Position numbers and translations under genes: made by a program. 64,000 nucleotides of DNA from Batrachochytrium dendrobatidis JAM81 (lineage: Eukaryota; Chytridiomycota; Chytridiomycetes; Rhizophydiales), in NCBI RefSeq assembly GCF_000203795.2, contig NW_006281099.1, positions 2,049,774-2,113,773 of the forward strand. Reading direction: 5' to 3'. Position 1 is the stretch's first letter. The number at the start of each line of letters is the position of its first letter. The notes beneath the pieces are model-generated. The model was not told the origin of the DNA. It saw only the letters and a program-made list of their open reading frames with translations, and did not search any database. This document shows, one piece after another, positions 5,161 through 57,527 of this stretch.

Positions 5161-5332
5161 ATCCAATAATTGAAAGTTTAATTTATACTTGTAAATCTTG
5201 AGTGTATGAATATGTGAATATACTCGACAGATGTTTTGTAAGCTTGGTTCAGATCTGATTGTATAAATGAGTTGCGACTGTGAATTTCAAAAAGTTTAAT
5301 ATTGTCTGAATTCAAGTTAACCCAACAGAATT

Positions 5333-6376
5333 ATGTCGGAAACCTCCAAACACTTTACTGTCGATGCTATCCCCGACCTTACTGGAAAGGTTGTTATGGT
5401 AACAGGAGGAAACACTGGAATTGGCTATGAAATGTGTTTAGAGCTGGCTCGCAAAGGAGCACAGGTTGTCATGGCATCTCGCTCAGCGGATCGAGCTGCA
5501 GCTGCCATTGCTCGTATTAAGCAACAACTCCCCCAGGCATCTATCGAGTTTATGCATCTTCAACTTTCAGATCTTCACCAGGTCCAAAAGGCATCTTCAG
5601 AGTATATTGCATCAGGAAAGCCGTTAAATATTCTGATCAACAATGCTGGTATCATGGCTTCGCCATTTAAGCTCAGTATGGATGGGATTGAAGAACAGTT
5701 TGCAACCAATCACGTTGGACATTTTCTGCTGACCACGGCGCTTTTGCCTGTGTTGCTAAAGAGTCATGACGATAAGGATATGCCGAGGATTGTCAATGTG
5801 TCGTCGAATTACCATAACAAGGCACCTTTACCCCAAGGTATTCGATTTGACAAGATTAATGATCCAGGCGATCAGGACATTTGGCAACGATATGGCCAGA
5901 GCAAACTAAGCAACATTCTATTTTCCAACGCACTGAACAAGCGATATGGTGATCGTATTTATATCAACAGTGTTCACCCAGGTAGTTAATTGATAGCAAT
6001 TGCTTTGTATTCGTGTAATTGAGAGGTTCAAATGATTTACTATGAAGGCTTGTGTTGATGATATGATTGTGAGTATATAGGATTTGTCAAGACAGAACTG
6101 ACACGAGGACCAACTGCTAGTTATGGCGCATGGTTTACACCTTTGATGTGGGTTGCAAAAGCGATTGGGGCTATTTCATCTCAGCAGGGAGCACTTACTC
6201 CTCTTTATGCAGCCACATCACCAGATATTGTCAAAAACAACGCCAAAAACAGATACTTTGTGCCAATTGCGATTGATTCTCCAGAGGGACTGACAGATCT
6301 TGCCAAGAGTGATGATCTTGCAGAACAATTATGGAAATTTACGGATAAGCTTGTCAAACAGAAACTCGGTCTTTGA
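5333..6376 (+). CDS. short-chain dehydrogenase/reductase, retinol-dehydrogenase-like
   Basis: NAD(P)-dependent oxidoreductase of the classical SDR family, closest in style to retinol dehydrogenase 11-14 and WW-domain oxidoreductases. Two exons, 5333..5981 and 6081..6376, encode about 314 residues; the split codon restores HPGFVKTEL across the splice. Visible motifs are the Rossmann cofactor loop TGGNTGIG (residues 24-31), the structural NNAG, the catalytic serine region VNVSSNYH, and the active-site YGQSK with Tyr187 and Lys191. No signal peptide or transmembrane anchor is seen. The substrate cannot be read from sequence. The start at 5333 gives a normal N-terminal length before the cofactor loop. 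Confidence 0.9.
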
Positions 6377-56127: not shown

Positions 56128-56184
56128 ATTGGTTCACGTGTCATGTTATCTGATTGGCTGGAATTAAGTCTGCAAAGTATAAAA
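56128..56184 (+). promoter_or_regulatory. HAC1 core promoter: inverted CCAAT, CACGTG, TATA
   Basis: ATTGG (inverted CCAAT) lies at 56128-56132, CACGTG at 56135-56140, a second ATTGG at 56153-56157, and TATAAAA at 56178-56184. The first in-frame ATG (56184) overlaps the TATA box, so transcription should begin downstream of it, which favours the ATG at 56226 as the translation start. CCAAT plus CACGTG spacing is not an exact ER-stress element, so stress control at this level is only possible. Confidence 0.5.
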
Positions 56185-56225: not shown

Positions 56226-57527
56226 ATGGCTGACCAACGCTCATCTAGCCAACAGCGCATGCTGTTCCAGCCTCTATCTACTGAATTCTATTTATCCAAC
56301 CTATTCGACTCCTCATCAGAAGCTCCTACCACATACTCGCCTGCTAATCCTATAGAGTGGGAGTCGTTGTTTACTGCCAATGTCGGTTCTTTACCCCAAT
56401 TAACGGGTTTTGACACTCAACCTCTACCGACTTTGCCTTGTCTGTCCAATCCTAGTCCGGTCGATGCTCTACCGTCATCTACTGCTATACAAACCGATCC
56501 CAAACCGATCCGTACCAAACGCAAGGCTACAATCAATTTGGAAGACAGAGAAGATCGTGCTCGAGAACGCATTATTCGCAATAGACAGGCTGCTCAGGAG
56601 TCGAGAGAACGTAAAAAGTTGCAAAATGAAAACTTACAGGAAGAAAACCAAAGACTAAAACTGGCAAACGTTCAGTTGTCCGCCCGTCTAGAAACCATTG
56701 AACGATCTAATCAAAACCTCATTGTGAGACTAGATCACCTGTCACAACAGCTGTCCTTGCTGGTATCCACGACTGTGCATCACTCCGACTCCAACAAGTC
56801 TGTCAATAATCCTCATATTTCTACTGCATCTACTATCCATTCTCATATTCCTTCCACTTCACTAGCTTCTCCTGCCTTGTCTCCAGAATCTGTTGCTGTC
56901 TCTTCATCCTTATCAACCGATTCTAGCATTCCATTCATGACTCCATCAATATCACATCCCACTACTGTTAGTGATCAACTTTCATTAAATTTAATCAACT
57001 CTATACCATTGAACAATAATTCTGTACATAGTCAGTCTATTTTCGGCACCTGCGAATCAGAAGTATTCGCAGATCCCCAGATGTGGGTGCCGATCAATGG
57101 ACTGCCTCTTGTCTTGACGATTTTTTCCAGTCCCATTCAAGCTCGTTTGACTTGGCAAGTGTATCTGTATCTGGCTCGATCGCTTCTGCCCTCGCTCCTT
57201 GCGACGGTAAAGTCTTTGCCCCAGCACTTTCAGACAACGTCTTTGCCATGTCTTTCTTCGACCTTGGACTCGAACTGTAATTCTGTCAAGAAGTACTTGG
57301 CTGTTGTGGATGGTTTACCATTGATTACTTTACCTTCTGTTGACCCCTTTACTACTAATTGGATTGAAAATGCCACGTTTATGAACAAGGGTCGTTTTGT
57401 TGCTGTGCAAGACCCTCTCAATCAAGAATCTAAATCTTTGAATGTGCATGAATATGTTACCTCATCTCATCTAAAATGGCGCAAACAGTTTCCCATTTCA
57501 TCTGACATCCTCAATGATATGTTGTGA
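56226..57527 (+). CDS. HAC1: HAC1/HacA-type bZIP factor of the unfolded protein response (unspliced frame)
   Basis: Transcription factor that activates ER chaperone and secretion genes. From the ATG at 56226 the unspliced frame encodes 433 residues; an in-frame ATG at 56184 overlaps the TATA box and is less likely. The basic region RARERIIRNRQAAQESRERKK (about 111-131) has the N-x-A-A-Q-x-S-R core typical of HAC1/HacA/XBP1. A leucine zipper follows to about residue 175. The rest is Ser/Thr/Pro-rich. A double RNA hairpin near codon 278 marks a predicted 20-nt unconventional intron at 57061-57080. The spliced message (56226..57060 joined to 57081..57280) would encode 344 residues with a new 66-residue tail containing DDFFQSHSSSFDLAS and ending FFDLGLEL, acidic and aromatic like activation domains. 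Classification is by bZIP sequence plus this hairpin. Confidence 0.85.
   Translation: MADQRSSSQQRMLFQPLSTEFYLSNLFDSSSEAPTTYSPANPIEWESLFTANVGSLPQLTGFDTQPLPTLPCLSNPSPVDALPSSTAIQTDPKPIRTKRKATINLEDREDRARERIIRNRQAAQESRERKKLQNENLQEENQRLKLANVQLSARLETIERSNQNLIVRLDHLSQQLSLLVSTTVHHSDSNKSVNNPHISTASTIHSHIPSTSLASPALSPESVAVSSSLSTDSSIPFMTPSISHPTTVSDQLSLNLINSIPLNNNSVHSQSIFGTCESEVFADPQMWVPINGLPLVLTIFSSPIQARLTWQVYLYLARSLLPSLLATVKSLPQHFQTTSLPCLSSTLDSNCNSVKKYLAVVDGLPLITLPSVDPFTTNWIENATFMNKGRFVAVQDPLNQESKSLNVHEYVTSSHLKWRKQFPISSDILNDML
57043..57093 (+). promoter_or_regulatory. predicted Ire1 cleavage double hairpin with 20-nt intron
   Basis: Hairpin 1 is a perfect 8-bp stem, CTGCGAAT (57050-57057) with ATTCGCAG (57065-57072), closing the 7-nt loop CAGAAGT. 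Hairpin 2 has a CCC/GGG stem (57075-57077 with 57085-57087) closing the 7-nt loop CAGATGT. Both loops fit the Ire1 rule CNG/NNGN, with cleavage after the G at 57060 and 57080. An outer stem, TCGGCAC (57043-57049) with GTGCCGA (57087-57093), brackets both and shares one G with hairpin 2. The excised 20 nt equals the HacA intron length known in filamentous fungi. Confidence 0.82.

What the first reader, a model, noticed from the sequence alone, without database searches (positions are those of the whole stretch)
57043..57280. Unconventional 20-nt Ire1-type intron in a chytrid HAC1 gene
The sequence shows two hairpins with 7-nt loops CAGAAGT and CAGATGT, both fitting the CNG/NNGN rule for Ire1 cleavage, the first on a perfect 8-bp stem and both enclosed by an outer stem. 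Cutting after each loop G removes exactly 20 nt. The new frame runs 66 codons to a stop at 57280 and gives an acidic, aromatic tail, while the unspliced frame continues to 57527. Known HacA/Hac1 introns in filamentous ascomycetes are also 20 nt. This would put cytoplasmic Ire1 splicing, with the same intron size, in an early-diverging zoosporic fungus.
Basis: partly seen in the sequence, partly recalled or inferred. Interest (0 to 1): 0.9.

Follow-up and report, generated by a model that had tools for sequence, protein, structure and literature searches.

The report
Stress-switch mini-intron in chytrid gene
A gene of a chytrid fungus very probably carries a tiny 20-letter intron that the cell's protein-folding stress sensor cuts out to switch on the stress response, a switch already known from yeasts, moulds and animals and here indicated in an early-branching swimming-spore fungus.

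Summary
The window (a Batrachochytrium genome) has a single-copy bZIP gene, 56226-57527, with two CNG|ANGN loops (57058-57064, 57078-57084) inside one enclosed RNA structure. Cutting after each third loop base removes 20 nt (57061-57080) and turns an unspliced 433-aa product into a 344-aa one with a 66-aa acidic tail. Hairpin 1 is a perfect 8-bp stem; hairpin 2 is weak (2-3 bp; a shifted register folds 2.8-3.4 kcal/mol better). Geometry alone is not rare (about 6 expected per genome), but of 8 bZIP loci found only this one has it. Support: the site is the best conserved stretch outside the bZIP in B. salamandrivorans (17/20), with both loop-codon changes at free loop positions; unspliced-frame changes stay compatible with the spliced frame more often inside the spliced tail (15/28) than elsewhere (30/171); the tail's acidity is reached by 0 of 1526 open synonymous recodings; the genome has IRE1 with a luminal part and a three-domain Trl1-type ligase, and no RtcB match. 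No RNA data were available. I judge it a HAC1/HacA-type Ire1 intron in Chytridiomycota: a new member of a known kind. A possible novelty is a conserved C-terminus present only in the unspliced product.

The parts
56226..57527 (+). HAC1-type bZIP gene, unspliced reading frame, 433 aa, one continuous frame
   Evidence: bZIP_2 E 5.6e-8
56553..56705 (+). bZIP_2 match (residues 110-160)
57043..57049 (+). 5' arm of outer stem, pairs with 57087-57093
57050..57072 (+). hairpin 1: perfect 8-bp stem 57050-57057/57065-57072, 7-nt loop CAGAAGT 57058-57064, cut predicted after 57060
57061..57080 (+). predicted Ire1 intron, 20 nt
   Evidence: sequence; Ire1 motif from passages of PMC6037481 and PMC8104961
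57075..57087 (+). hairpin 2: 2-3 bp stem CCC/GGG with 7-nt loop CAGATGT 57078-57084, cut predicted after 57080; competes with a shifted register
57087..57093 (+). 3' arm of outer stem; in silico the exon-exon helix grows to 11 bp (57043-57053 with 57083-57093) once the intron is gone
57081..57280 (+). exon 2 in the spliced frame: 66-aa acidic tail, stop codon 57278-57280
57281..57527 (+). C-terminus present only in the unspliced product; residues 405-429 are 18 of 25 identical in B. salamandrivorans

Best explanation
This is the Batrachochytrium HAC1/HacA counterpart. Its mRNA is made as a continuous 433-aa reading frame. Under ER stress, ER-bound IRE1 cuts after G57060 and G57080, the 20-nt piece leaves, the exon ends are held by the outer stem (which can grow from 7 to 11 bp once the intron is gone), and the Trl1-type tRNA ligase joins them in the cytoplasm. 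The frame shift replaces the last 155 residues by a 66-aa acidic tail, giving a 344-aa active transcription factor. Shown here: structure in silico, frames, codon constraint, presence of the enzymes. Inferred: cleavage, ligation, stress dependence, activity of the tail.
For: Both loops fit CNG|(C/A)NGN (motif in passages of PMC8104961 and PMC6037481). Fold z -3.7 by shuffles and by synonymous recoding. 1 of 8 bZIP_2 loci found has the element. B. salamandrivorans protein P0002: 17 of 20 residues identical across the site (274-293) against at best 10 of 20 in the linker and 8 of 20 in the N-terminus; the two loop-codon differences (E279A, M286Q) can be met by changes at loop positions 4/5 alone, with G3 and G6 still codable (my reading). 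In 30 of the 44 proteins P0008-P0051 (Mortierellaceae and like) the site reads CQSA[V/A]LA, where Q..L (CAG..CTG possible) stands for E..F (GAA..TTC), a paired change that would keep the stem. For the finding and 10 relatives (sites picked by eye), the peptide can encode an 8-10 bp stem on a CNGNNGN loop, in the same codon phase in 11 of 11. Spliced-frame compatibility of Bd-Bsal changes 15/28 against 30/171 in the rest (Fisher p 1e-4), 8/10 in the last 20 codons, stop included. Tail acidity 0 of 1526. IRE1 on L014: signal-peptide-like start, luminal match E 0.002, TM, kinase, RNase. Trl1: three domains on L015; no RtcB match. A profile of the relatives finds an ascomycete protein named hacA (E 1.6e-12).
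Against: No RNA reads. Hairpin 2 mostly folds in another register in silico. The geometry alone is expected about 6 times per genome; frame openness alone has 7.6%; aromatic content is ordinary. The spliced tail has no significant similarity to the four spliced-frame tails tried (93 to 1605 of 2000 shuffles as good). Against the other off-frame of the same stretch the compatibility contrast is borderline (15/28 v 8/28, p 0.05). The DNA of B. salamandrivorans and of the other relatives was not available, so their hairpins are inferred from proteins. Other stretches of the unspliced tail are nearly as conserved as the site (15/20 and 16/20). Rfam gave no match.
Confidence: 0.88

Rival explanations
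1. IRE1 cleaves one or both loops but the pieces are degraded (RIDD-like), not joined; the shifted frame is not used.
For: Hairpin 2 is weak; S. pombe Ire1 is specialised for decay (abstract of PMC8104961 as listed).
Against: The shifted frame is open, more acidic than 1526 of 1526 open recodings, and its changes in B. salamandrivorans are compatible in 15 of 28 cases; the exon ends can pair over 11 bp, the kind of feature PMC6037481 links to ligation (passages); a Trl1-type ligase is present.
Confidence: 0.05
2. Chance: a bZIP factor translated only as the 433-aa form; the hairpins are accidental.
For: The geometry arises by chance several times per genome, and the shifted frame stays open in 7.6% of recodings.
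Against: It lies in 1 of 8 bZIP loci found, where relatives' proteins can encode such a site too, with conservation peaking there outside the bZIP.
Confidence: 0.03
3. The structure serves another RNA role (pausing, localisation) in the unspliced mRNA, without cutting.
For: The unspliced product is also conserved near its C-terminus.
Against: Does not explain loop letters together with constraint on the shifted frame.
Confidence: 0.03

Closest known systems
HacA/Hac1 of filamentous ascomycetes (20-nt Ire1 intron)
   Same: bZIP gene, 20-nt intron, loop motif, frame change; 20 nt confirmed by sequencing in F. graminearum (PMC10786393, passages); the hacA protein P0045 can encode a first site in the same codon phase
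   Different: Site peptide CESEVFADPQM rather than HPAAVLCDLQC; second stem very short; ascomycete spliced tails were not compared
Mortierellaceae bZIP proteins (30 of P0008-P0051, CQSA[V/A]LA ... QQ[K/R])
   Same: First-site peptide of the same design and codon phase; four spliced-frame-like models (P0037, P0039, P0040, P0044) carry [D/E]SFLDL near the end, resembling SFFDLG
   Different: Longer implied introns, 41-65 nt counted from proteins; DNA not seen; tail similarity not significant
Metazoan XBP1 (26-nt intron, RtcB ligation; abstracts)
   Same: Twin hairpins with cleavage 3' of the third loop base; both unspliced and spliced forms coding
   Different: Here a Trl1-type ligase and no RtcB match
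Saccharomyces HAC1 (252-nt intron; PMC6116095 passages)
   Same: Ire1 and Trl1-type ligase, loop motif
   Different: No long attenuating intron; the unspliced frame runs through

Membership tests
HAC1/XBP1 Ire1-spliced bZIP mRNAs | bZIP domain upstream of the intron | tested here: met
   PF07716 E 5.6e-8, residues 110-160
HAC1/XBP1 Ire1-spliced bZIP mRNAs | Two loops of 7 nt with CNG|(C/A)NGN letters | tested here: met
   Letters met for both (motif)
HAC1/XBP1 Ire1-spliced bZIP mRNAs | Both loops presented on stable stems | tested here: inconclusive
   Hairpin 1 stable (8 bp); hairpin 2 only 2-3 bp in the needed register, probability about 0.03 in silico
HAC1/XBP1 Ire1-spliced bZIP mRNAs | Excision shifts the frame into a new C-terminal tail | tested here: met
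   66-aa tail, D+E minus K+R = 8; activation by it untested
HAC1/XBP1 Ire1-spliced bZIP mRNAs | Site conserved in relatives | tested here: met
   Protein level only: P0002 and 9 further relatives can encode the first site
HAC1/XBP1 Ire1-spliced bZIP mRNAs | IRE1 sensor with luminal, TM, kinase and RNase parts in the genome | tested here: met
   L014; luminal match weak (best E 0.002), exons not joined
HAC1/XBP1 Ire1-spliced bZIP mRNAs | RNA ligase able to join the exons | tested here: met
   Trl1-type three domains on L015; no RtcB match
HAC1/XBP1 Ire1-spliced bZIP mRNAs | Stress-dependent removal of the intron in vivo | not testable with these tools
   no RNA data held
HAC1/XBP1 Ire1-spliced bZIP mRNAs | Orthology by phylogeny | not tested
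   Profile A2 finds hacA at E 1.6e-12; no tree was built

The most novel reading that the evidence does not exclude
In Batrachochytrium both reading frames after the intron are selected proteins. The unspliced 433-aa form, with its own conserved C-terminus (residues 405-429, LNVHEYVTSSHLKWRKQFPISSDIL, 18 of 25 kept in B. salamandrivorans) beyond the spliced stop, is a working regulator (an XBP1u-like partner or inhibitor), so that an early fungus runs a two-product switch over an overlapping gene, unlike budding yeast, where the unspliced form is not detected.
Probability: 0.35. Interest if true: 0.7.

Novelty: new member of a known kind. Interest (0 to 1): 0.5.

Why it matters
It would extend Ire1-HAC1 splicing, with the 20-nt size known from moulds, to Chytridiomycota, which bears on the ancestral form of the fungal unfolded protein response and suggests that the long introns of budding yeasts are derived. 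It would also mean that the protein held in the database (P0001, 433 aa) is the unspliced form. The hunt for such introns in other early fungi becomes direct, since the first site can be read even from proteins.

Tried and rejected
XBP1u-like membrane-docking hydrophobic segment in the unspliced tail: many relatives have hydrophobic unspliced tails, but random codons for the Bd spliced tail give as much hydropathy in the unspliced frame in 184 of 215 open cases (of 3000 drawn), so in Bd it is a by-product of the frame relation; Bd's value is 1.23. Rejected as evidence.

Tail homology: SFFDLG/SFLDL looks alike, but shuffles reach the score in 93 (P0044), 396 (P0039), 450 (P0048, another fungus) and 1605 (P0040) of 2000. 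Not claimed.

P0040 (FCQSAAEAG...) as a record of a spliced transcript: a mispredicted ordinary splice acceptor explains it as well (my reasoning). Not used.

Rfam, 2 kb around the gene: only two hits far below their gathering scores. A homology search by the bZIP region alone found only P0001 and P0002 among 94 candidates. In some searches only the roughly 8000 candidates sharing most words were scored, so relatives are not complete.

Literature: no paper holds hac1 + Batrachochytrium + unfolded protein response; none holds hac1 + 'unconventional splicing' + Mortierella; Ire1 + Batrachochytrium gives 2 papers and Batrachochytrium + unfolded protein response 8, off topic by title and start of abstract. 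Listings (20 of 483; 20 of 373; 20 of 39; 10 of 45; 10 of 194) show no title on a chytrid HAC1 intron; the nearest is PMC10512342 on anaerobic fungi. Hooks & Griffiths-Jones 2011, a broad survey of these introns (recalled; seen only as a citation), is not held, so I cannot say whether it already lists this species.

Rows dropped: P0008 was left out of alignment A2 (truncated); one search tested P0001 and 10 of the 50 other proteins, at sites picked by eye; residues 273-286 were outside the regions compared; bZIP genes were sought with PF07716 only.

Full report
WHAT IS THERE. The window lies on contig 1 of a 23.5-Mb, 33-contig genome. The gene's protein is in the protein database as the window's own (P0001, 433 aa). 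The only close relative found is B. salamandrivorans BSLG_000586 (P0002; 75% identity over 18% of the query, 48% over the whole alignment). The gene 56226-57527 has one match to itself and no second copy in the genome and reads through as one frame. At 57043-57093 the mRNA folds in silico into an outer stem that encloses two hairpins with loops CAGAAGT and CAGATGT. Both loops meet CNG|(C/A)NGN, the stringent S. cerevisiae Ire1 motif (passages of PMC8104961 and PMC6037481). Cuts after each third loop base remove exactly 20 nt.

HOW UNUSUAL. By dinucleotide shuffles the fold has z -3.7 (0 of 200 as good), and by synonymous recoding z -3.7 (3 of 2000 as stable). The bare geometry, however, is expected about 6 times per genome (9 in 66.5 Mb simulated); in 522 kb of real strand sequence the finding was 1 of 3 pairs at the loosest criterion and the only one at stricter ones. 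It is its place that matters: of the 8 bZIP_2 loci found in the genome, only this one has it, also at a looser criterion. Hairpin 2 is the weak point: in the 7-nt-loop register it has 2-3 bp and lies 2.8-3.4 kcal/mol above a shifted register.

THE SPLICED FRAME SEEMS UNDER SELECTION. The 66-aa tail has D+E minus K+R = 8. Redrawing synonymous codons leaves the frame open in 1526 of 20000 cases, and none of those 1526 is as acidic, while 1393 are as aromatic: the acidity is remarkable, the aromatic content is not. Comparing with the B. salamandrivorans protein, I asked at each changed residue whether some codon choice keeps the spliced-frame residue. Inside the spliced tail 15 of 28 changes do; in the other three regions together 30 of 171 do (10/65, 10/56, 10/50; Fisher p 1e-4). 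In the last 20 codons 8 of 10 do, the stop codon included (p 6e-5). The other off-frame gives 8 of 28 in the same stretch and 56 of 168 elsewhere, that is, no rise; the direct contrast 15/28 v 8/28 is borderline (p 0.05). This rests on proteins, since the relative's DNA is not held.

THE SITE IS CONSERVED. The best 20-residue window at the site is 17/20 identical, against at most 10/20 in the linker and 8/20 in the N-terminus; two stretches of the unspliced tail reach 15/20 and 16/20. The two loop-codon differences (E279A, M286Q) lie where the loops are free to vary (positions 4 and 5), and the third (T275A) leaves a G-U pair in the outer stem possible (my reading). In Mortierellaceae and like, 30 of 44 proteins examined (P0008-P0051) read CQSA[V/A]LA at the site: C-E..F-A in Batrachochytrium and C-Q..L-A there are what a stem gives when GAA/TTC is exchanged for CAG/CTG. 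By enumeration, the finding and 10 of 10 relatives tested, ascomycete hacA among them, can encode an 8-10 bp stem on a CNGNNGN loop at a site picked by eye, in each case starting at codon position 2; 1 to 8 of the 84-194 admissible positions per protein, the site included, do so well.

THE MACHINERY. L014 carries an IRE1 gene: a signal-peptide-like start, an ORF matching the human IRE1 luminal domain (E 0.002; the ORF before it only E 0.2-0.3 to IRE1/IRE2), a TM segment, kinase and RNase. L015 carries all three Trl1 domains. RtcB gives no match here, while the same search rings in 9 of 14 control genomes, which are prokaryotes as far as named. So ligation would be of the fungal kind.

MECHANISM. 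IRE1 cuts both loops; the exon ends stay paired, and with the intron gone the exon-exon helix grows in silico from 7 to 11 bp (57043-57053 with 57083-57093), like the zipper described for XBP1 (as summarised in PMC6037481). Trl1 joins the ends, and the 344-aa factor with the acidic tail is made, 278 residues being shared with the unspliced form. Cleavage, joining and stress dependence are inferred.

NOVELTY. A 20-nt intron of this kind is sequenced in F. graminearum (PMC10786393, passages); sizes of 19 to 297 nt are given for other fungi and 379 nt for an unspliced one (PMC6116095, passages). In anaerobic fungi (Neocallimastigomycetes) Ire1 was reported, and the query list of that study did not include HAC1 (PMC10512342, passages). 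My searches (long listings seen only in part) showed no paper on a chytrid HAC1 intron, but the survey of Hooks and Griffiths-Jones 2011 is not held and may include it. I file it as a new member of a known kind. The less expected part is that a stretch of the unspliced-only C-terminus is conserved (18 of 25 residues, 405-429), which suggests that the unspliced protein is also made and used.

Noticed in passing
L013:2040-6691 (G000:C7): A second IRE1-like gene whose kinase and RNase match solved IRE1 (best 2rio_A, E 6.6e-112) but which may be soluble: the TM-like stretch before the kinase is the translation of a predicted 80-nt GC-AG intron (5296-5375), and the 1090-aa ORF upstream has no Pfam match and a maximal 19-residue hydropathy of 1.02.
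   Followed up: partly
P0008, P0041, P0042 (Mortierellaceae-type proteins): These proteins run on after FCQ into other residues beginning with V, as if an ordinary spliceosomal intron lay inside the 5' arm of hairpin 1; the Ire1 hairpin would then exist only after nuclear splicing.
   Followed up: no
unspliced tails of P0003-P0036: Unspliced frames after the site are often hydrophobic in other fungi too; for Bd this is a by-product of reading an acidic tail in the other frame. Not tested for the others.
   Followed up: partly
window 56178-56184: TATAAAA 42 bases upstream of the start ATG 56226; it overlaps an in-frame ATG at 56184 that is thus less likely to be the start.
   Followed up: no
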